NCBI RefSeq assembly: GCF_004087915.1
Contig: NZ_CP035108.1
Span: 1,612,001 to 1,676,000, forward strand
DNA: 64,000 bases
Origin: Geovibrio thiophilus
GTDB taxonomy: Bacteria > Chrysiogenota > Deferribacteres > Deferribacterales > Geovibrionaceae
Direction: 5' to 3'
Positions 1,339 to 43,463 of this stretch are shown one piece after another (the first letter of the stretch is position 1; every line of letters starts with the position of its first letter). The translations under genes were made by a program, and so were the position numbers. A model generated the notes under the pieces. It had not been told where the DNA came from. It saw only the letters and a list, made by a program, of their open reading frames with translations, and searched no databases.

Positions 1339-1344
1339 AAATAA

Positions 1345-1368
1345 GGCAGCCGTCCGGCTGCTTTTTTC
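1345..1368 (+). terminator. Rho-independent terminator after pyrD
   Basis: GCAGCCG (1346-1352), a two-base loop, CGGCTGC (1355-1361), then six T. The same hairpin with its flanking AAG recurs at 2320-2335. Confidence 0.85.
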
Positions 1369-1481
1369 ATATTCTGTTGAAAATCAAACTCATACTGATA
1401 TAATGCAGCAAGGTCAATCGAAGCTCTTCAGAAGTTCTTATTTTCCTAATCTATTCGTTTCAACAAAAATAAGGAGACTTT

Positions 1482-2120
1482 ATGAAATCATCACGCAGAA
1501 GTTTTATCAAAAATGCTGCTCTGACCGGAGTATTGGTTTGGAGTTTCGGATGTGCCGCTTACGGAAGTGAGATTGCTACGGATCCCGTCAGCATCAGAGA
1601 AGCTAAAATCAAAGGAGAGTCCTTTGATGATGGTAATTCGGCATATGACAAAGAAAAAAAACAGTTCAAATTGCGTAAGGACGGGGATGAGATAGTCTTT
1701 TCCGCAAAAGATATTCCTTATGATTATAATAAAAAACTCAAGAAGGCAGAATCCTTAGGATTTCCCGGAATGACTGTTACTTATAATAACACAACAATAA
1801 ATGTTGATTATCTTTCAAGCTTCACTGTGGAACGTAATGGTTACTGTATGATAATAAAAAACGGGAGTGATTTGATAGTAAACAGTTATTTTTTGACAGA
1901 AGGGGACATTGATCCCGAAATACCGGTTTTTCCGATAACTTTGAAATACAATAACCTGTTCTTCACAATTAACGACGATATTGTGACTCTTGAAGTAAAC
2001 GGCAGCAGTTTTGTCGGTGAACAAATTATATTTAATAGTTCAAGCGATACATCCATTGTAAAAAACGGTGCAGACATCGAAGTAAAACAACTACCGTTCA
2101 GGAAACAAAATGAGCACTAG
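1482..2120 (+). CDS. Tat-signal exported protein of unknown function, paired with a mini-ferredoxin
   Basis: A 212-residue protein I do not recognise. It opens with a twin-arginine signal (SRRSFIK at residues 4-10, a hydrophobic stretch, then an AYG-S type cleavage region near residue 29), so it is probably exported folded. The mature part is rich in beta-prone, Asn/Lys/Asp segments with no cysteine motif or catalytic signature that I can see. A clear ribosome site (AAGGAG, five bases before the ATG) fixes the start. The ferredoxin gene at 2110 overlaps its end by 11 bases, implying coupled translation. Its last 60 or so residues resemble the exported protein at 41089-41511 (for example ITLKYNNLFFTINDD against TTLQFKDITAVFDD), which is also followed by a mini-ferredoxin. 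Function unknown; a redox-linked periplasmic role is only inference. Confidence 0.8.
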   Translation: MKSSRRSFIKNAALTGVLVWSFGCAAYGSEIATDPVSIREAKIKGESFDDGNSAYDKEKKQFKLRKDGDEIVFSAKDIPYDYNKKLKKAESLGFPGMTVTYNNTTINVDYLSSFTVERNGYCMIIKNGSDLIVNSYFLTEGDIDPEIPVFPITLKYNNLFFTINDDIVTLEVNGSSFVGEQIIFNSSSDTSIVKNGADIEVKQLPFRKQNEH

Positions 2121-2298
2121 AGTTGTAATTGATGAAGATAAATGCACTGGTTGTGGATTATGCGTGATAGTCTGCGGAGCAAGCCTTATCTATATGGATA
2201 ATGACAAGGCAAAAACAAAGAGATATTTTTGTATACCATCAGATTGTGTGAAATGCGTCGAGGCATGTCCAGTAAATGCTATAACTTTGTTAGCATGA
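2110..2298 (+). CDS. Mini-ferredoxin, two 4Fe-4S motifs
   Basis: 62 residues with cysteines at 12, 15, 18, 22 (CxxCxxCxxxC) and 41, 46, 49, 53 (Cx4CxxCxxxCP), consistent with two [4Fe-4S] clusters of a bacterial 2[4Fe-4S] ferredoxin. The first motif ends in CG rather than the usual CP. There is no signal peptide, so it is cytoplasmic unless it travels with the overlapping Tat substrate upstream. Its ribosome site (AGGA, six bases before the ATG) lies inside the upstream gene. The acceptor or donor is unknown. A related but divergent ferredoxin is paired with a related exported protein at 40878-41511. Confidence 0.88.
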   Translation: MSTRVVIDEDKCTGCGLCVIVCGASLIYMDNDKAKTKRYFCIPSDCVKCVEACPVNAITLLA

Positions 2299-2318
2299 AT
2301 ACCTTATAATACAATAAA

Positions 2319-2341
2319 GGCAGCCGTCCGGCTGCTTTTAT
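2319..2341. terminator. Bidirectional terminator, copy of the pyrD terminator
   Basis: GCAGCCG (2320-2326), two-base loop, CGGCTGC (2329-2335), followed by TTTTATT on the plus strand and by CTTTATT on the minus strand. It can end both the ferredoxin transcript and the convergent fabF transcript. Confidence 0.8.
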
Positions 2342-2359
2342 TAATTTTCGAGTGAAGAA

Positions 2360-3622
2360 TCAGCGAAGTTTACCGAAAACAGCTATGGCACAGTGTCCAC
2401 CGAATCCAAAGGTATTGCTCATCGCAACGTTCACAGACTTTTTCCTTGCTTTGCCGAGAATGATGTCCAGCCCCTGCGGTGTATCGTCGTCAAGGTTTTC
2501 CGTATTTATAGTGGGCGGTATTACACCGTCCTTAATCGTCATAACGCAAATAAGCGCTTCTATAGCTCCGGCTGCACCAAGCAGATGCCCCGTCATAGAT
2601 TTTGTAGCACTGATGGACAGGTTTTTGGGTTTTTCGCCGAAAAGCTTGATAATAGACCTTATTTCGCTATCGTCACCAGTGGGGGTGGAAGTAGCATGCG
2701 CATTGAGATAATCCACATCCTCTGCTTTCAAGTCTGCATCTTCAAGAGCGTTTTTCATCCCGAGATAAGCTCCCATGCCCTCAGGGTGAGTGGCAGTGAG
2801 GTGATAAGCATCCGCTGCAAATCCTGCGCCCAGAACCTCGGCATATATCTTAGCTCCTCTGGCTTTGGCGTGTTCATATTCCTCAAGAACAAGTCCAGCT
2901 GCGCCTTCGCCCATTACAAATCCATCGCGATCCTTGTCAAACGGGCGTGAAGCCTTTTCGGGAGCATCATTTCGCTCGGAAAGCGCTTTCATTGCGTTGA
3001 AACCTCCCATGGATGAATCGCAGATGGCAGATTCAGCGCCGCCTGTAATGATGATGTCCGCCTTGCCGAGTCTGATATAATTGAAAGCATCGGCTATGGC
3101 GTTTGTCGATGAAGCACATGCGGAAACGGGGCAGAAGTTTATTCCCATAAGTCCGAACCTGATGGAAATGAGACCTGAGGCTATGTTCGTGATAATTTTA
3201 GGAACGAGAAAAGGGGAGAATCGGGGTTTTCCCCGATGTGAGGCGTAGTCTATAATCTGTTCGTCCATAGTGGGCATACCGCCAACGCTGGATGACCATA
3301 TGACACCTGCGCGGGTTTTGTCAAATTCCGCAATGTTCAGATTTGCGTCTCTAAAAGCCTCGTCCGCCGCCGCTATGCTGTAATGGCTGAATATATCCAG
3401 CCTGCGGGCTTCCTTTGCGTCAAAATACGATAATGTATCAAATCCTTTTACCTCGCATGCGAAACGGGTTTTGAAGCCGGATGCGTCAAATTTGGTAATA
3501 GGTCCTGCGCCGCTGACTCCGCTCATAAGATTATTCCATGAATCCGCAACATTGTTGCCGAGAGGGGAAACTGCGCCTAGCCCTGTAACCACGACTCTTT
3601 TAAGTTGAATTGTCTTTGGCAT
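2360..3622 (-). CDS. fabF: Beta-ketoacyl-ACP synthase II
   Basis: A 420-residue condensing enzyme that elongates acyl-ACP with malonyl-ACP. The thiolase-fold triad is intact: Cys169 (SACASS), His309 (NAHATSTPTGD) and His346 (SMTGHLLGAAG). I place the start at 3622, where AAGGTGAT lies just upstream; reading further upstream adds 39 residues that only overlap the MarR gene in another frame. It follows the MarR regulator by four bases, so the pair is one transcript. No other fatty-acid synthesis gene adjoins, so this may be a second, specially regulated FabF rather than the housekeeping one. Confidence 0.94.
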   Translation of the reverse strand: MPKTIQLKRVVVTGLGAVSPLGNNVADSWNNLMSGVSGAGPITKFDASGFKTRFACEVKGFDTLSYFDAKEARRLDIFSHYSIAAADEAFRDANLNIAEFDKTRAGVIWSSSVGGMPTMDEQIIDYASHRGKPRFSPFLVPKIITNIASGLISIRFGLMGINFCPVSACASSTNAIADAFNYIRLGKADIIITGGAESAICDSSMGGFNAMKALSERNDAPEKASRPFDKDRDGFVMGEGAAGLVLEEYEHAKARGAKIYAEVLGAGFAADAYHLTATHPEGMGAYLGMKNALEDADLKAEDVDYLNAHATSTPTGDDSEIRSIIKLFGEKPKNLSISATKSMTGHLLGAAGAIEALICVMTIKDGVIPPTINTENLDDDTPQGLDIILGKARKKSVNVAMSNTFGFGGHCAIAVFGKLR

Positions 3623-3626
3623 ATAA

Positions 3627-4061
3627 TCACCTTCCGTATTTGATACGACGAGAGATAAGCTTGACGGCGTTGATACCGTCTTCTCCCAATATATCATATA
3701 TTTTGGTCTGAACATTCTTCCAGTCCGGACGAGAGGCAAGAAGCAGTTCTCTGCCTTTTTCAGAGATGTCTATTCTTTCGTCCCCGGTTTCGTACAGCCA
3801 GCCGTTTTTTATCATTCTATCCAAGTTTCTGGTTACGGTGGATTTCTCCATCCGAAGTATTCTGCTGATCTCGGAACGCTTTTTAGCCCCGTCTGCCGCC
3901 AGAGAGATCAGGATAGACGCCTGACTGATTTTTAAGCCGTGCTTCTTCAGCTCTCTGTCGTAAATGCCGGTTATTACTCTGTTCATGAGGCGCATTTTTC
4001 CTGCTGTGCATTCTTCGATAACTGTCAATGCGAACTCTGTGATTTCGTCAGTTTTATCCAT
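3627..4061 (-). CDS. MarR-family transcriptional regulator
   Basis: 144 residues. The winged helix-turn-helix occupies about residues 50-110 (segments SQASILISLAADG, KKRSEISRILRMEKSTVTRNLDRM), matching the MarR fold, with helices at both ends for dimerisation. It is co-transcribed with fabF. A perfect 14-base palindrome sits 11 bases before the start codon, which suggests that the protein represses itself and fabF. MarR relatives that control fatty-acid synthesis (FabT in streptococci) are known, and the gene order hints at a similar job here, but that is inference. Confidence 0.88.
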   Translation of the reverse strand: MDKTDEITEFALTVIEECTAGKMRLMNRVITGIYDRELKKHGLKISQASILISLAADGAKKRSEISRILRMEKSTVTRNLDRMIKNGWLYETGDERIDISEKGRELLLASRPDWKNVQTKIYDILGEDGINAVKLISRRIKYGR

Positions 4062-4071
4062 CAGCCACCAT

Positions 4072-4085
4072 GTTGTATATACAAC
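4072..4085. promoter_or_regulatory. Probable MarR operator
   Basis: GTTGTATATACAAC is a perfect inverted repeat and resembles the TTGnnnnnnCAA type of site used by MarR proteins. It lies immediately before the regulator's start codon. Confidence 0.7.
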
Positions 4086-4177
4086 TTAATAAAAAGCATT
4101 AGAAATGTCAAGCTTGAGAAAGAGTCAAAGGGCAGGGGGAAACTTAAACAGAATGTATAATATTTATTCACAGATAT

Positions 4178-13378: not shown

Positions 13379-13442
13379 TTATTTCTCCATTTGTGAGTTT
13401 AGGCAGTACAGATATGCAAGTTCCGTACTGCCTTCAATGGTG

Positions 13443-14360
13443 CTAAAGTTTCGTTGAGAAGGTTAACCAGAGAGCATTGCCCTCTGTTGAGTCTTCAGTG
13501 CTGAACTCTTTGTAATATTTTATTTTTACCTGACCGTTGATTTGGGAGATAAAAGCGTTGAGCTCCGGACCGATTCCGAATTTCCTGTCGTGAACAGATT
13601 TATCCCATGACACATCTTTTCCTGAATCATCAGTAATCTGCCAGTGAGCATAGCCTGAAAGACCTGCATCAAAGATTCCGATTGTCCGCCCTACTCCCCA
13701 TTCCAAGTTCAGGTCGTCCCCGTATGTAATATCAAGATCCCTGTTTTCAAAGTGTTTCTCATGTCTGGCTAAAACAGAAACGCTCCACAGTTTGTCTTCA
13801 TCCGGATAGAAGGTTACGCCGTATGTAGTCATCAGTGTATAATGATCATTGCCTGTATTGGCCAAATCTGATTTGTCGTATTCTCCAGTGGGGAGATACA
13901 TGGCAGCACCAAAGACAGCGTCATATCTTTTGCCGTGCCATGCGAGAGTCAACGGTTCAATGGTTGTGTCACCGATATTAAACTCGCTGTCATCACCGGC
14001 GGCTGTTTCAATATCAACATAAACAGCCGGGATTATCAGATTCATTCCGTAATCAGCACCGAGGATTTTCTTTTTTGTCATCCATATAAAACGGTGAACG
14101 TTGGCAAATGTTTTGATTTCCGGAGGATTGTCAATTTTATCACCGCTGCGGTCTCTGAATTCATCGGAAGAGAAATATTGGTTGTACATTACATAGTAAA
14201 AGCCGGGTCCGGGTATGCTGGCGGCCTTTATACCTTCTGAACCAAGCGCGTAATCCTGCGCGTTTGCAGGTGAAAAAGCTGATACCAGAAAAAGCAGAAG
14301 CAGTACGATTACCGCTTTTCTGATTTTTATAAAAGTTATGGGCATATATCTGGCTAACAT
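13443..14360 (-). CDS. Outer-membrane beta-barrel protein (phenol MetA-pathway transporter-like)
   Basis: 305 residues with a signal peptide ending near FSPANA-QD and a mature part of alternating aromatic/polar beta strands ending in a terminal aliphatic/aromatic strand (ALWLTFSTKL), typical of an outer-membrane barrel. The overall pattern (opening strand, GDTTIEPLTLAWHG, MYLPTGEYDKSDLANTG) matches the family annotated as putative MetA-pathway phenol degradation protein. It may admit an aromatic or other organic electron acceptor. The start has GAGG seven bases upstream. Gene order places it between the regulator and the cytochrome. Confidence 0.8.
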   Translation of the reverse strand: MLARYMPITFIKIRKAVIVLLLLFLVSAFSPANAQDYALGSEGIKAASIPGPGFYYVMYNQYFSSDEFRDRSGDKIDNPPEIKTFANVHRFIWMTKKKILGADYGMNLIIPAVYVDIETAAGDDSEFNIGDTTIEPLTLAWHGKRYDAVFGAAMYLPTGEYDKSDLANTGNDHYTLMTTYGVTFYPDEDKLWSVSVLARHEKHFENRDLDITYGDDLNLEWGVGRTIGIFDAGLSGYAHWQITDDSGKDVSWDKSVHDRKFGIGPELNAFISQINGQVKIKYYKEFSTEDSTEGNALWLTFSTKL

Positions 14361-14471
14361 ATAAAATCCTCACATTAATAAACTGTTACGCGGTTCTTTG
14401 ATATGGGCGTTTTTTCACTGCCAAAAGAAAAAGGTAAAAAATTAATGCCAAACGGGTAAAAAACAGCAGGG

Positions 14472-36782: not shown

Positions 36783-36803
36783 CCTTCCTCATAACGCCCG
36801 CAA

Positions 36804-36838
36804 AGCCCGTGAGATTTGACTCTCACGGGCTTTTTTAT
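36804..36838 (+). terminator. Terminator after the tandem phosphatase
   Basis: AGCCCGTGAGA (36805-36815), TTTGAC, TCTCACGGGCT (36822-36832), T-run. Nearly identical to the terminator at 38983-39018, and the similarity continues for about 20 bases downstream. Confidence 0.9.
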
Positions 36839-36863
36839 CGCCAAATGCGCTCATAAGATCATA

Positions 36864-36958
36864 GCTGAATTGGATGCTAAAAAACACATGAGGGTATGAA
36901 TACAGCGTAAAGTCTACTCTCAGTGAGCTTGGCAGACACAATTACAGTATTCAAATGG
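36864..36958 (+). pseudogene. Decayed fragment of the downstream ABC-F ATPase gene
   Basis: About 95 bases closely match 39404-39498 inside the ABC-F gene; for example TATGAATACAGCGTAAA occurs in both. Translated with one frame shift the fragment reads AELDAKK...GYEYSVKSTLSELG, against AELDAKNAWGYEYSVKSVLGELG in the intact gene. The shift and a stop codon near the middle make it non-coding. Together with the similar terminator just upstream it records a local duplication that was later eroded. Confidence 0.85.
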
Positions 36959-37132
36959 ACACATTTTTCTCCAATATATCAAAATTTTACTGTGTCAGAC
37001 TGGATTCATGAATATCCCCGAAAACTCGGTCTGTTGTTCAACCGGATATTTTTCTGTTATTTGATAAAAACATCATTTTTTCTTAATTGATTTTCATTAT
37101 TCTTCGCTATTCATAATAATCAGAGGTGCAAT
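36959..37132. other. Gene-free region before the 5'-nucleotidase gene
   Basis: AT-rich, no coding frame and no hairpin worth naming; it presumably carries the promoter of the nucleotidase gene. Confidence 0.3.
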
Positions 37133-38956
37133 ATGAGGAAATGGTTTAGCAGCAGGCTTAAGGTGTTTTTTTTCACTTTAGCTGTCCTGTCTTTCGTTAT
37201 TCAAGGCTGCGGAGGAGATTCAAGCTCAGACAGCAGCGCCGGGAAGGAGCACAAGGCTGTTTCGGTAAAAATCATTCATATTAACGATCACCACTCTCAT
37301 CTCGATCAGGAATCCACAACTCTCACCATCGCAGGTTCTGAAGTTGAAATTGAGCTTGGCGGGTTTGCCAGAGTTGTATCAAAAATCAAATCCCTCAGTG
37401 CTGAAACACCCAACAATATTATTCTCCATGCGGGGGATGCAATATCAGGGACTCTCTATTACACTCTTTTTAAAGGAGCCGCTGATGCCGCTGCTATGAA
37501 TCTTGTGAATTTTGACGCAATGGCTGTGGGAAATCATGAATTTGACAATGGAGATCAGACACTTAAAGATTTTATCGATCTATTGGACTTTCCCGTAATC
37601 AGCGCCAATGTGAAACCGGCATCAGGCAGCACACTCGACGGTTCCATCGCTCCTTATATCATTAAGGAAATAAACGGCGAAAAAATAGGTATAATCGGCT
37701 TAACGATCAAGGACAAAACCGAACAATCCTCAAGTCCGAGCGATAACATAACCTTCATTGAAGAAAAAACCGCAGTTGAGGACACAGTCGAAGACCTTGA
37801 GGAGCTGGGTGTAAATAAAATAATTCTTCTCAGCCATTACGGATATGACAATGTTCGTGACTTGGCGAGAGAAGTCAGAGGCATCGACGTTATTGTTGAC
37901 GGAGACTCCCATACGCTTCTCGGCGATTTCGATGATTTAGGACTCGCTGCGTCCGGTTCATACCCCACTATGGAGGCATCTTTGACGGGTGAGCCTGTCT
38001 GCATTGTTCAGGCATGGCAGTACAGTTATGTTGTGGGCGATTTAGACGTTGCAATGGACAAGGATGGGCGGGTTACAAGCTGCCTTGGAAATCCGGTGCT
38101 TCTCGTCGGCGATATTTTGAGTGTATCAAGTCCTACATCATTGTTCGCAGCTGCTGCTGCCGATAACCAGACCATCATCGACGCAATCAACGCCAATCCC
38201 AATATCGAAATTGTTGATGAAGATACAGCTGTGACGGCTGTTATAAGCGAGTATTCCGAAGAAGTTCAGGAAATGAAGGCTATGGTTATAGGCAAAGCCG
38301 GTGAGGATCTGCTTCATAACAGGATTCCCGGTGTAACTTATAGCGGCGTAAATCTCCCCCTCGGTTCGGATATAGCTCCGATCGTTGCCAAAGGATTTCT
38401 CGAACTGGCTCTCAGAGCTGACGTATGTATTCAAAATGCGGGCGGAGTGAGGATAAGCATAGAAGGAGATACGGATATATCTTATGATACCGCTTATACT
38501 CTCCTGCCTTTTGCGAACACCCTTTTTGAAATAGAAATGTACGGTTCGGAAATCAAGTCAGTGCTTGAGGACGCGGTTGATTTTGCTGTAGTCGGAGCCT
38601 CTTCCGGAGCATTCCCTTACTCTTACGGACTGAGATATGATGTTAACGCAGGAAATGAATTCGGGAACAGGATACTCAATCTTGAAGTAAGAGACAGGGC
38701 AACAGACACATGGTCACTGATAAATGAAAATGAAATGTATGTTGTGGTCACAAACTCATTTACTGCAAGCGGGCAGGACGGCTACACCACATTTAAGACA
38801 GTTCAGGATCAAAGAGGTCTGGGTGTGGATACTTTCCTTGACTATGCAATGTCGTTTGTCAATTACGTGGAAATGGAGACTGCGGCAGGAAATGATATTA
38901 TGAAGCTTCCCGCTTCCGAGCACCCTATAAAAAGCTATACTCCGGCAGTTGATTAG
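37133..38956 (+). CDS. 5'-nucleotidase/UshA-type lipoprotein
   Basis: 607 residues with a lipobox (FVIQGC, Cys27) and a Ser-rich spacer. The metallophosphatase domain shows INDHHSHLD, the GDAISGTLYY and GNHEFDNG dimetal motifs and HYGYDN. The C-terminal 5'-nucleotidase domain (about 380-600) carries QNAGGVR and the substrate-clamp LPFANTL. It likely strips phosphate from extracellular nucleotides, as UshA does, giving nucleoside and Pi. It follows the tandem phosphatase and its terminator, so the two are neighbours in purpose but separate transcripts. Confidence 0.92.
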   Translation: MRKWFSSRLKVFFFTLAVLSFVIQGCGGDSSSDSSAGKEHKAVSVKIIHINDHHSHLDQESTTLTIAGSEVEIELGGFARVVSKIKSLSAETPNNIILHAGDAISGTLYYTLFKGAADAAAMNLVNFDAMAVGNHEFDNGDQTLKDFIDLLDFPVISANVKPASGSTLDGSIAPYIIKEINGEKIGIIGLTIKDKTEQSSSPSDNITFIEEKTAVEDTVEDLEELGVNKIILLSHYGYDNVRDLAREVRGIDVIVDGDSHTLLGDFDDLGLAASGSYPTMEASLTGEPVCIVQAWQYSYVVGDLDVAMDKDGRVTSCLGNPVLLVGDILSVSSPTSLFAAAAADNQTIIDAINANPNIEIVDEDTAVTAVISEYSEEVQEMKAMVIGKAGEDLLHNRIPGVTYSGVNLPLGSDIAPIVAKGFLELALRADVCIQNAGGVRISIEGDTDISYDTAYTLLPFANTLFEIEMYGSEIKSVLEDAVDFAVVGASSGAFPYSYGLRYDVNAGNEFGNRILNLEVRDRATDTWSLINENEMYVVVTNSFTASGQDGYTTFKTVQDQRGLGVDTFLDYAMSFVNYVEMETAAGNDIMKLPASEHPIKSYTPAVD

Positions 38957-38981
38957 TAATTTGCATCTGTAATACAAATTA

Positions 38982-39019
38982 AGAGTCCGTGAGATTTGCC
39001 TCTCACGGGCTTTTTTATT
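38982..39019 (+). terminator. Terminator after the 5'-nucleotidase
   Basis: GTCCGTGAGA, loop TTTGCC, TCTCACGGGC, then six T. It is a sister of the hairpin at 36804-36838. Confidence 0.88.
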
Positions 39020-39055: not shown

Positions 39056-40894
39056 ATGAATCTTTTATCAATTGAAAAACTTAAGAAGAACTATGGCGAC
39101 AGGACAATATTTGAGAACGTAACCTTCGGGCTGAATGAAGGTGACAAAGCTGCCATAATAGGCATAAACGGCAGCGGAAAATCCACCCTGCTTAAGATTA
39201 TCGCAGGGTTTGAGGAGGCTGACGGCGGGAATGTTGCCATAAATAAAACATGTATCATAAACTATTTATCTCAGTTACCTGATGTAGTGCCTCATGTCAG
39301 CGTGATAGACTACATCTTCAAGTCAGATACGCCGACGATGCGCCTTATTAAGCGGTACGAACAGCTCTGTAATACAGACAGCCCTGAGCTGCACAGGGTT
39401 ATGGCTGAACTGGACGCAAAAAATGCGTGGGGATATGAATACAGCGTAAAATCTGTTCTCGGTGAGCTTGGAATCCACGACTACAATATGAAAATGGGCG
39501 AACTCTCCGGCGGAATGGCGAAGAAGGTCTCTCTTGCTCAGGCACTTATTGACGAGGGGAATCTGCTCATACTCGATGAACCCACCAACCACCTTGACGT
39601 CGATACGGTGGAATGGCTCCAGAACCATATGGAAGCCACCAAAAAAGCTGTTTTGCTTGTCACCCATGACAGATACTTCCTTGATAGTGTCTGCAATGTT
39701 ATTTTTGAGATAGACGAAGGCGGATTCACAAGATACGACGGCAACTACTCATCCTACCTTGAGAAAAAAGCGGAATCCGAAGCCCACGAGCAGCGCAGGC
39801 AGGACAGGCTGGCAAATATTATGCGGAATGAGCTTGTATGGCTCCGCAGAAGCCCCAAGGCGCGTACGACCAAGCAGAAAGCAAGGATAGACCGTGCTGC
39901 GGTGATTCAGGACAGCATAGTACGCAAAACCGACCGTGAGCTTGAACTTAAGACCCTCGGACGGAGATTGGGCGGCAAAATTGTTGACCTGAAGGATGTC
40001 TCCAAGGCATATGGTGATAAGGTTCTGTTCCGTGATTTCAGCTACTCCTTCAAAAAAGGGGAAAAACTCGGCATCGCCGGCGCCAACGGCAGCGGAAAAT
40101 CAACCTTCCTGCGCATTCTGACGGGTGAGGAACAGCCGGACAGCGGAATTGTCGATATAGGTATAAATACATTCTTCGGCGTGTTTGATCAGCACAGTAA
40201 AGAGCTGGACCCGGAGATGAAGGTTATTCAGTATATTGAGGAAACAGCAAAAAACATTAAGCTGGATAATGGGCTTACCTTGTCCGCGTCACTGATGCTT
40301 GAGCGCTTTCTTTTTCCGAAGGACAGCCACTACCGCCCTATCGGAAAGCTTTCCGGCGGGGAAAAGCGGAGGCTGCATCTTGTGAACGAGCTTATCAAAA
40401 ACCCTAACTTTATCATTCTGGATGAACCGACGAACGACCTTGATATACAGACATTAAGCGTGCTTGAGGATTTTCTTGAAGACTTCGGCGGCTGCGCTGT
40501 CGTGGTTTCTCACGATAGATACTTCATGGACAGAGTCTGCGATACTATGTTTATTTTTCAGGGAGACGGCATTTTTGAGCACTTTCCCGGCAGTTATTCC
40601 AATTGGCTGGAATCCAGAACCAAAGTGAAAGATAAAACCGCAGAAAAGAAGGAAGCCCCCAAACCCGCACAGGAAAAGAAACGTAAGCTCACATACGCAG
40701 AAAAGAAGGAATATGAAGGCATTGAGGCGGAAATAAGCCGTCTGGAGGGCAAGCTTGCCGACATGACGGCGGAGCTTGAAAAAGGCGGAAGCGACTACTC
40801 CCGCCTTGCGGAGCTGCAACAGAAGATAGATGCCGCTGAAACCGAGCTCCTTGAAAAAATGGAAAGATGGGAGTATCTTAACTGCTTATCATAG
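39056..40894 (+). CDS. uup: ABC-F family ATPase (Uup-like)
   Basis: 612 residues with two soluble ABC domains and no membrane part. Walker A motifs GINGSGKSTLLK and GANGSGKSTFLR, signatures LSGGMAKKVSL and LSGGEKRRLHL, and Walker B ILDEPTNHLD and ILDEPTNDLD are intact. The interdomain linker holds RRSPKARTTKQKARIDR, and the C-terminal 70 residues form a charged coiled coil, as in Uup. ABC-F proteins act on the ribosome or on branched DNA. A decayed piece of this gene lies at 36864-36958. Confidence 0.93.
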   Translation: MNLLSIEKLKKNYGDRTIFENVTFGLNEGDKAAIIGINGSGKSTLLKIIAGFEEADGGNVAINKTCIINYLSQLPDVVPHVSVIDYIFKSDTPTMRLIKRYEQLCNTDSPELHRVMAELDAKNAWGYEYSVKSVLGELGIHDYNMKMGELSGGMAKKVSLAQALIDEGNLLILDEPTNHLDVDTVEWLQNHMEATKKAVLLVTHDRYFLDSVCNVIFEIDEGGFTRYDGNYSSYLEKKAESEAHEQRRQDRLANIMRNELVWLRRSPKARTTKQKARIDRAAVIQDSIVRKTDRELELKTLGRRLGGKIVDLKDVSKAYGDKVLFRDFSYSFKKGEKLGIAGANGSGKSTFLRILTGEEQPDSGIVDIGINTFFGVFDQHSKELDPEMKVIQYIEETAKNIKLDNGLTLSASLMLERFLFPKDSHYRPIGKLSGGEKRRLHLVNELIKNPNFIILDEPTNDLDIQTLSVLEDFLEDFGGCAVVVSHDRYFMDRVCDTMFIFQGDGIFEHFPGSYSNWLESRTKVKDKTAEKKEAPKPAQEKKRKLTYAEKKEYEGIEAEISRLEGKLADMTAELEKGGSDYSRLAELQQKIDAAETELLEKMERWEYLNCLS

Positions 40895-41087
40895 TGAAGC
40901 ATTGCTCAGGACATAAATGAAAACAAACTAAAGGACAAACACTGTAGCATTTAGATGATTGAATATCAAAGTCATCATGACCGTTCATTTTTTCAAAAAC
41001 ATTAGCTGGACAGGCAAGAATACAATTTTGGCACCAAGTACAATGGGTATCAGTCCATATTAAATTGTATAAATGAACAACTGCCAT
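40878..41087 (-). CDS. Divergent mini-ferredoxin with a cysteine ladder
   Basis: 69 residues. One canonical 4Fe-4S motif (HCTWCQNCILACP, Cys16/19/22/26) is followed by five cysteines spaced exactly four apart (Cys47, 51, 55, 59, 63), not the usual CxxCxxCxxxCP, so the second cluster is altered or different. It starts one base after the stop of the exported protein at 41089, mirroring the pair at 1482-2298. Its 3' end overlaps that of the convergent ABC-F gene by 17 bases. No signal peptide. Function unknown. Confidence 0.8.
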   Translation of the reverse strand: MAVVHLYNLIWTDTHCTWCQNCILACPANVFEKMNGHDDFDIQSSKCYSVCPLVCFHLCPEQCFTMISS

Positions 41088-41088
41088 T

Positions 41089-41511
41089 TCAAAGCTCTTT
41101 AAAACTAAAGATAAATGCTCTGCTGTCAGCTATAAACAATTCAATCGAACTCTGCGATTTATTATAAATTATTTTTATATTATCATATTTGGCAGTTGCC
41201 TCGCTACTGTCTTCATTGAGACTACCGCCATTAACGTTTAGCTCATTCTTACCATCGATCATTTGTTTTGAGAAGATCTCACTGCCGCCTCGTGTGATTT
41301 TCACAGACTCAGTTTTATCGTCAAATACTGCTGTAATATCCTTAAACTGTAATGTTGTTATATCGCCCTTCTTCTTCACAGAACCAAGATGAAAGACTTT
41401 ATAATCAGATGCAGAAGCTGTGTTAAAGCTGAATAATAACATTATTCCAACGGCGACAATACTGATTGCGGAAAACCTCAGAAAAGTTCTTTTAGACATA
41501 TTAATTTTCAT
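41089..41511 (-). CDS. Tat-like exported protein, paralogue of the protein at 1482-2120
   Basis: 140 residues with a twin-arginine-like signal in the KR form (SKRTFLRF at 6-13, then a hydrophobic stretch and cleavage near TASA-SD). The mature 100 residues are beta-prone without cysteines: GDITTLQFKDITAVFDD, VKITRGGSEIF, LNVNGG. They resemble the last part of the larger protein at 1482-2120. A good AGGAGG precedes the ATG. It is directly followed by a mini-ferredoxin, so the two-gene arrangement is conserved although sequences have diverged. Function unknown. Confidence 0.78.
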   Translation of the reverse strand: MKINMSKRTFLRFSAISIVAVGIMLLFSFNTASASDYKVFHLGSVKKKGDITTLQFKDITAVFDDKTESVKITRGGSEIFSKQMIDGKNELNVNGGSLNEDSSEATAKYDNIKIIYNKSQSSIELFIADSRAFIFSFKEL

Positions 41512-41609
41512 GGCAGCCTCCTGTAATAATATTAGACTGCCATAATAATGTACATGCTGTCAAGTATGTTTGATACAGAGAATCAACATAAGCTCACAAC
41601 ATTTTTATA

Positions 41610-43463
41610 TTATTCATCATCCCCAAGTTCTTTCAAAAGTGTTTCGTATTTCGCTGATTCAAACTCGAAGTCCTCTGTAGCCGTTTCAAGCTGCTTAAAG
41701 AGCTTTTCGATTTCCGATTCCCATTCGGTAAGCTCCTTTGAGAGTGAGCTTATTTTGGCGGTGTCGCCGTTCTCGGAAGCGGTTATCAGAAAGCTGTTTA
41801 TATCCGCAACTCTTTTTTCGGCGGTCTCTATGGCTGTTTCTGTATCCTGCACCCTTTTCTCAAGCGGAGCAACGACCCTGCTCTTTTCGCTCAGCAGATC
41901 GGAGCGCTTTTTTCTCAACTCTTTTTTTGTCAGCTTACCCTGTGATGTGACTTTCTTTTTTGGCTTCGGAGTTTCTTCCTCTTCGTCCCAGCCTTCTTTC
42001 TCAAGAAATTCGGCATATGTGCCGTCAAAAACGCTTATCTTATTGTTTTTGAAGACTATAAGCCTGTCCGCCAGAGCATGGAGAAACATCTCGTTGTGGG
42101 TGATCAGAAGGAGTGTTCCCGGAAAATCATCCAGAGCCTCAAGGAGTGAATCGCAGGACTGCATATCAAGGTGGTTCGTCGGCTCATCCAGCATGAGGAA
42201 GTTCAGCGGTTTCGCAAGGAGTTTGCCCAGCATTACCCTGCTTTTCTCACCGCCGGAGAGAACGCCTATCTTCTTAAGCGCCGAATCCCCTTCAAACATC
42301 ATTATTCCCGAGATGTTGCGCGCTCTCTGCCTGTCCACATCCGGTGCGGTATGGAGGAGCTCCTCCTCAATTGTGCGCCTGTCGTCCAGAGTTTTTATAT
42401 TTGTCTGCTCGTAAAAGCCTTTCTCTATTCCCGGACCGTAATAGATTTCACCTGCGTCCGGTTTCATTTCTCCTGCAAGCAGCTTAAGCAGGGTAGTTTT
42501 GCCCTTGCCGTTTTTACCGATTATGCAGACACGTTCGCCGGTGGTAATATTTATGCTGAAATCTTTAATCAGCGGATCGTTTTTGTCATAGCCGAAGGTT
42601 ACCCCTTTGGCATTCAGCCCTGTTTTACCTTCGTAGTGTTTGTAACGGAAGCCGAAGTCCAGATCTTTTATATCCTCCAGCTTTGCCCTTGAACCCATCT
42701 TCTCAAGCATCTTCACCCTTGATTGGGCACGGCTTGCCAGAGACGCTTTGGATTTGAAACGGGTGATGAACGCCTCAACCTCTTTGCGCTTCTGTTCCTC
42801 ATTCTGGCGGGTTTTCTCGTAGATCTCTTCTTCGGTCGCTATCTGCTCATAGAGCTTGCCCGTATCCCCTTCTATTTTTCGGATCTTCCTGCGGTGGATG
42901 GCAACGGTATGGGTCACCACGGCGTCCATAAAGCTTCTGTCGTGAGTGATAAGCATCAGCTCGCCCTTCCAGCTTCTTAAGAAATTTTCCAGCCAGCGCA
43001 CAGAGGTAATGTCCAGATAGTTTGTCGGCTCATCGAGAAGGAGCATGTTCGGTTCGGAAACAAGAACCTTAGCCAGATCCAGACGAACCTGATAACCACC
43101 CGAAAACTCGGACGGATGACGGTACATATCATCCTCTGTAAACCCGAGACCGAAAAGGATCTTCTCCACTTTCCAGATCTGCCCCTCATCTTCTTCCCGA
43201 AGTCCTTTGCAGCCTTCCTCAATAACTGTGTTTTCTGTGAAATCAAGGTGCTGCTTAAGATGCCCTATCACATATCGTTTCGGGAAGCTCACCTGACCGG
43301 AATCAGGCGTTTCCTCACCTATCATCATGCGGAAAATTGTCGTCTTGCCGTGTCCGTTTCTGCCGACCAGCCCTGCTCTCTCCCCTTTATTTAATCTGAA
43401 TGAGGCATCCTCAAGGAGAACCTGCCCCCCGTAGCTTTTGCTTATGTTTTCAACGTTTACCAT
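41610..43463 (-). CDS. ABC-F family ATPase (YheS-like)
   Basis: 617 residues. Walker A GRNGHGKTTIFR and GKNGKGKTTLLK, signatures EFSGGYQVRLDLA and VLSGGEKSRVMLG, Walker B LLLDEPTNYLD and LMLDEPTNHLD are present, and the C-terminus is a long coiled coil (about 520-617). Start 43463 is chosen for GGAG eight bases upstream; a longer frame adds 23 residues without a ribosome site. It is a second ABC-F, of a different branch from that at 39056. Confidence 0.93.
   Translation of the reverse strand: MVNVENISKSYGGQVLLEDASFRLNKGERAGLVGRNGHGKTTIFRMMIGEETPDSGQVSFPKRYVIGHLKQHLDFTENTVIEEGCKGLREEDEGQIWKVEKILFGLGFTEDDMYRHPSEFSGGYQVRLDLAKVLVSEPNMLLLDEPTNYLDITSVRWLENFLRSWKGELMLITHDRSFMDAVVTHTVAIHRRKIRKIEGDTGKLYEQIATEEEIYEKTRQNEEQKRKEVEAFITRFKSKASLASRAQSRVKMLEKMGSRAKLEDIKDLDFGFRYKHYEGKTGLNAKGVTFGYDKNDPLIKDFSINITTGERVCIIGKNGKGKTTLLKLLAGEMKPDAGEIYYGPGIEKGFYEQTNIKTLDDRRTIEEELLHTAPDVDRQRARNISGIMMFEGDSALKKIGVLSGGEKSRVMLGKLLAKPLNFLMLDEPTNHLDMQSCDSLLEALDDFPGTLLLITHNEMFLHALADRLIVFKNNKISVFDGTYAEFLEKEGWDEEEETPKPKKKVTSQGKLTKKELRKKRSDLLSEKSRVVAPLEKRVQDTETAIETAEKRVADINSFLITASENGDTAKISSLSKELTEWESEIEKLFKQLETATEDFEFESAKYETLLKELGDDE

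What the first reader, a model, noticed from the sequence alone, without database searches (positions are those of the whole stretch)
1482..2298. Duplicated two-gene module: Tat-exported beta-rich protein plus mini-ferredoxin
Two loci about 39 kb apart (1482-2298 and 40878-41511) have the same layout: a twin-arginine-type exported protein without cysteines, then a 62-69-residue ferredoxin overlapping by 11 bases or one base away. The exported proteins look related over their last part, while the ferredoxins differ in their second cluster. Tight coupling of an exported protein to a signal-less ferredoxin is odd and suggests either co-export through Tat or an electron path linked to export. I know of no named system with this layout.
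Basis: partly seen in the sequence, partly recalled or inferred. Interest (0 to 1): 0.75.

Follow-up and report, generated by a model that had tools for sequence, protein, structure and literature searches.

The report
Ferredoxin plus exported-protein cargo pairs
One bacterium carries at least three, probably four, small inserted gene pairs, absent from the matching sites of its closest relatives, that each couple a tiny iron-sulfur electron carrier to a different exported protein of unknown function; the pairing is real, but nothing yet shows that the two proteins work together or are exported together.

Summary
Corrections: Exp1 has two cysteines; Exp2 has a KR, not RR, signal; similarity over the 'last part' is not supported. 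Beyond the claim: (1) the genome holds a third pair (exported protein with Sec-type signal + 62-aa ferredoxin, one-base gap) and probably a fourth (ferredoxin + exported MORN-repeat protein); (2) all four are AT-rich and sit at sites that are empty or differently filled in sister species; (3) pairs 1 and 4 share a 39-bp leader element found nowhere else in the 3.0-Mb genome, so at least these two are related units; (4) none of 30 mini-ferredoxin loci in relatives is paired with an exported protein. No clear homologue of Exp1, Exp2 or Exp3 was found; one weak Exp1 relative is Sec-type and sits next to a methyltransferase gene, not a ferredoxin. Tat co-export therefore cannot be the common mechanism. 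Best reading: small, recently acquired two-gene cargo units; ferredoxin cytosolic, partner in the envelope. A functional link is plausible, not shown.

The parts
1369..4177 (.). Segment absent from sister genome G001 (pyrD then adjoins the thioesterase gene); holds module 1, a fabF-type gene and a MarR-type gene
   Evidence: Collinear blastn against G001
1377..1404 (+). Promoter-like sequence TTGAAA-16-TATAAT, 11 of 12, before module 1
   Evidence: Consensus scan; not evidence of function
1412..1450 (+). 39-bp leader element, also upstream of module 4 (G000:C1 about 1,600,663-1,600,701)
   Evidence: Local alignment score 53 vs at most 31 in shuffles; two matches of its core in the whole genome
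1482..2120 (+). Exp1, 212 aa, twin-arginine-type signal, otherwise no known family
2110..2298 (+). Fd1, 62-aa ferredoxin, two [4Fe-4S] motifs
2317..2340 (+). Terminator-like inverted repeat after Fd1, the same 17-bp core as the one after pyrD (1343-1364)
   Evidence: two copies in the window
40882..41612 (.). Segment without counterpart in G002 (about 150 bp there) and G001 (2.4 kb of other sequence there); holds module 2
41089..41511 (-). Exp2, 140 aa, exported, KR-type signal, no known family
40878..41087 (-). Fd2, 69-aa ferredoxin-like protein, unusual second motif

Best explanation
The two loci belong to a set of three to four small two-gene units, present in this genome and absent from the corresponding sites of its sister species. 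Each pairs a short soluble ferredoxin with a different exported protein. Shown: layout, AT-rich composition, empty or differently filled sister sites, a leader element common to units 1 and 4, absence of the pairing in the relatives examined. Inferred: they were acquired horizontally as cargo, into gaps beside conserved genes, and are expressed from their own promoters; the ferredoxin stays in the cytosol as an electron carrier, and the partner goes by Tat or Sec to the periplasm or envelope. Most likely mechanism (a guess): co-transcription and coupled translation keep both together because they serve one accessory trait, such as a redox or envelope stress response.
For: Four pairs in one genome, 0 of 30 in relatives (nominal Fisher p 0.001). 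Sister sites lack the units. GC 0.33-0.39 against 0.466. Shared 39-bp element at units 1 and 4 only. Overlap or one-base gaps in units 1-3 fit translational coupling (sequence). Sec-type signals in Exp3 and Exp4 fit separate compartments.
Against: No experiment and no second genome links the two proteins. Absence in relatives could also mean loss there. Units 2 and 3 lack the leader element. Unit 1 lies in a larger segment with fabF and a MarR-type gene, so it need not have moved alone. The weak Exp1 relative in G045 has a methyltransferase gene as neighbour, so the partner is not fixed. Fisher counts are not independent and two pairs were known beforehand.
Confidence: 0.5

Rival explanations
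1. Tat hitchhiking: the exported protein folds in the cytosol with its ferredoxin and both cross through Tat together, giving a periplasmic Fe-S electron carrier.
For: Textbook twin-arginine signal in Exp1; tight coupling; precedent for signal-less Fe-S partners (PMC10924467).
Against: Exp3, Exp4 and the Exp1 relative have Sec-type signals; Exp2 has KR only; no complex predicted or tested.
Confidence: 0.12
2. Chance neighbours: AT-rich orphan genes were acquired in small pieces, and ferredoxin and exported gene share a unit without any joint function.
For: Exported partners are unrelated to each other; slots are generally variable and hold other single genes; partner changes in G045.
Against: Three to four repeats of the same combination and a shared leader at two of them are hard to get by chance.
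Confidence: 0.3
3. Envelope toxin or effector with a small cytosolic partner: the exported protein acts on the envelope and the ferredoxin-like protein controls or protects.
For: Strain-specific exported genes with a small partner in slots that also hold a HicAB-like pair; Exp4 resembles proteins annotated as YwqK antitoxin.
Against: No toxin or immunity family hit; ferredoxin cysteine motifs are kept, which argues for cluster binding.
Confidence: 0.08

Closest known systems
Tat heterodimer ('hitchhiker') export and tail-anchored ferredoxin modules (PMC10924467)
   Same: A twin-arginine exported protein encoded next to a signal-less Fe-S protein (unit 1)
   Different: Partners carry no known cofactor or enzyme domain; no C-tail on the ferredoxins; other units use Sec-type signals
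Small 2[4Fe-4S] bacterial ferredoxins (Pfam Fer4 clan; PorD/KorD-type subunits)
   Same: Length, two cysteine motifs, Pfam matches
   Different: Not beside an oxidoreductase; Fd1 and Fd2 have non-canonical second motifs
Recently acquired ORFan genes from integrative elements (PMC2718499) and phage morons
   Same: Small AT-rich units between conserved genes, absent in relatives, partners without known homologues
   Different: Chromosomal, no phage or mobility gene seen nearby; repeated ferredoxin + exported content

Membership tests
Tat-exported heterodimer | Twin-arginine signal on one partner in every unit | tested here: not met
   RR in Exp1 only; KR in Exp2; Sec-type in Exp3 and Exp4
Tat-exported heterodimer | Complex formed in the cytosol and exported together | not testable with these tools
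   Needs fractionation or co-folding
2[4Fe-4S] ferredoxin | Two cluster-binding cysteine motifs (Fd1) | tested here: met
   Pfam Fer4_7, Fer4, Fer4_10 above cut-off
2[4Fe-4S] ferredoxin | Two cluster-binding cysteine motifs (Fd2) | tested here: inconclusive
   First motif canonical, second unusual; Pfam scores below cut-off
Recently acquired cargo unit | Absent at the same site in close relatives, with conserved flanks | tested here: met
Recently acquired cargo unit | Identified mobility gene or donor | tested here: not met
   None seen beside modules 1, 2 and 4; no donor homologue
Phage moron | Location in a phage or prophage genome | tested here: not met
   Housekeeping neighbours; no relatives in viral contigs

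The most novel reading that the evidence does not exclude
A new kind of mobile two-gene unit in which a dedicated ferredoxin is paired with interchangeable exported proteins, in some cases through a common leader element, so that cytosolic redox power is tied to an envelope or surface function.
Probability: 0.2. Interest if true: 0.75.

Novelty: new variant of a known kind. Interest (0 to 1): 0.45.

Why it matters
If the pairing is functional, it would be a redox-linked envelope system that standard annotation splits into 'ferredoxin' and 'hypothetical protein'. Even if not, it is a clean set of recent two-gene insertions with recognisable empty sites, two of them sharing an expression element, useful for studying how small cargo units enter chromosomes without a visible mobility gene.

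Tried and rejected
Homologues of Exp1, Exp2 and Exp3: plasmids, viral contigs and 60 relatives, no clear hit; only Exp1 was also put to GTDB contigs, by peptide seeds, no hit. Spurious: L006 (Exp2 hit inside a malic-enzyme-like gene); the Decorin_bind match of Exp1 (below cut-off). L008, L009, L011 and L012 are not exported + ferredoxin pairs. Structures: Exp1 mean pLDDT 48, Exp2 66.5, mostly beta; no Foldseek PDB match with E below 0.001, so no fold is claimed and an LptC/LptA-like idea was dropped. Leader element: no Rfam match near a gathering score, no better folding than shuffles, absent from viral contigs. Nearest Fd1 relatives in GTDB (80 loci): only 5 are short ORFs, none next to a convincing exported gene.

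Full report
Observation. Both pairs are present as described. Exp1 (1482-2120) ends 11 bases inside Fd1 (2110-2298); Exp2 (41511-41089, minus) ends one base before Fd2 (41087-40878). Fd1 passes Pfam ferredoxin cut-offs; Fd2 only approaches them. Exp1 has two cysteines, Exp2 none. Exp1 has a textbook twin-arginine signal (TIGR01409 just under its cut-off); Exp2 has KR. BLASTP aligns the two exported proteins only over the signal and the stretch after it (E 0.001), not over the last part; the DNA of the two modules is not alike. So 'duplicated' describes layout, not sequence.

More pairs. Searching the window's own genome with Fd1 gave 34 ferredoxin-type matches; I looked at the neighbours of 22 of them. 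One 62-aa ferredoxin (Fd3, about 346 kb, 51% identical to Fd1) follows, one base away, a 158-aa protein with a clean Sec-type signal. A 103-aa ferredoxin with a proline-rich N-terminus (Fd4, 1,600,825-1,601,136, 11 kb left of the window) is followed about 10 bases on, if the ATG is used, by an exported MORN-repeat protein. Fd4 has a TTG start in my reading, so its N-terminus is uncertain; the order of the genes is also reversed. I therefore call the fourth pair probable.

Insertions. Against sister genomes G001 and G002 (same genus): pyrD and the thioesterase gene adjoin in G001, without window 1369-4177; the module 2 gap is 731 bp here, about 150 bp in G002, and holds 2.4 kb of other sequence in G001; module 3 is replaced by about 100-150 bp in both sisters; module 4 is replaced by about 160 bp in G001. 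Module 1 shares its segment with fabF and a MarR-type gene, so it may have come in separately or with them. The modules' ferredoxin and exported genes have GC 0.33-0.39 where measured against a window mean of 0.466; among window stretches of equal length 1.7% and 0.1% are as AT-rich as modules 1 and 2. Such slots are generally variable: other segments in the window missing from G001 hold an outer-membrane-type gene (13395-14405) and a 5'-nucleotidase-type gene (36783-39005).

Leader element. The upstream regions of modules 1 and 4 share 39 bp at 85% identity, local score 53 against at most 31 in shuffles. The 25-bp core has exactly two matches at up to three mismatches in the whole genome, both at these modules, none in the control. 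The core pattern was written from these two sequences, so the informative point is the absence of further copies and the shuffled control. In module 1 the element begins about eight bases after a strong promoter-like sequence, so it is probably the 5' end of the mRNA. It does not fold better than shuffled sequence and is absent upstream of modules 2 and 3.

Control. In 17 relatives searched with a profile of the four ferredoxins (table cut off) I took 31 short-frame loci; 30 could be read, and none is coupled to an exported protein. Most are subunits of 2-oxoacid oxidoreductases or conserved stand-alone ferredoxins; one (L197) precedes a membrane protein. Against 4 of 8 here the nominal Fisher p is 0.001.

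Homologues. Exp1, Exp2 and Exp3 have no clear relatives in the collections searched (only Exp1 was put to GTDB contigs). One weak Exp1 relative (G045, 26% over the last 54 residues, E 9e-7 in a single comparison, 1.7e-4 in the genome search) has a Sec-type signal and overlaps a methyltransferase gene; no ferredoxin is next to it. Structure models are too poor for fold assignment.

Interpretation. The pairing is real and repeated in one genome, and two units share an expression element, which is hard to explain by coincidence for those two. Sec-type partners rule out Tat hitchhiking as the common mechanism, though it remains possible for unit 1; precedents exist (PMC10924467). I favour small horizontally acquired two-gene cargo with a cytosolic ferredoxin and an envelope partner; the functional link is inferred only.

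Noticed in passing
window 1343-1364 and 2317-2340: The terminator-like repeat after pyrD recurs with the same 17-bp core right after Fd1, so module 1 is flanked by direct repeats; whether the repeat is common in the genome was not tested.
   Followed up: partly
L013 (G002), downstream of pyrD: In G002 the slot after pyrD holds what looks like a HicAB-type toxin-antitoxin pair instead of module 1.
   Followed up: no
L145:6857-8499 (G045): A Sec-type exported relative of Exp1 overlaps a DNA-methyltransferase-like gene, an equally odd coupling.
   Followed up: partly
L147:4754-4850: A 19-codon ATG reading frame overlaps the TTG start of Fd4; leader peptide, frameshift or misread start.
   Followed up: no
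L147:11136-11708: A 190-aa minus-strand ORF made of five near-identical repeats beside recG, probably a tandem DNA repeat rather than a gene.
   Followed up: no
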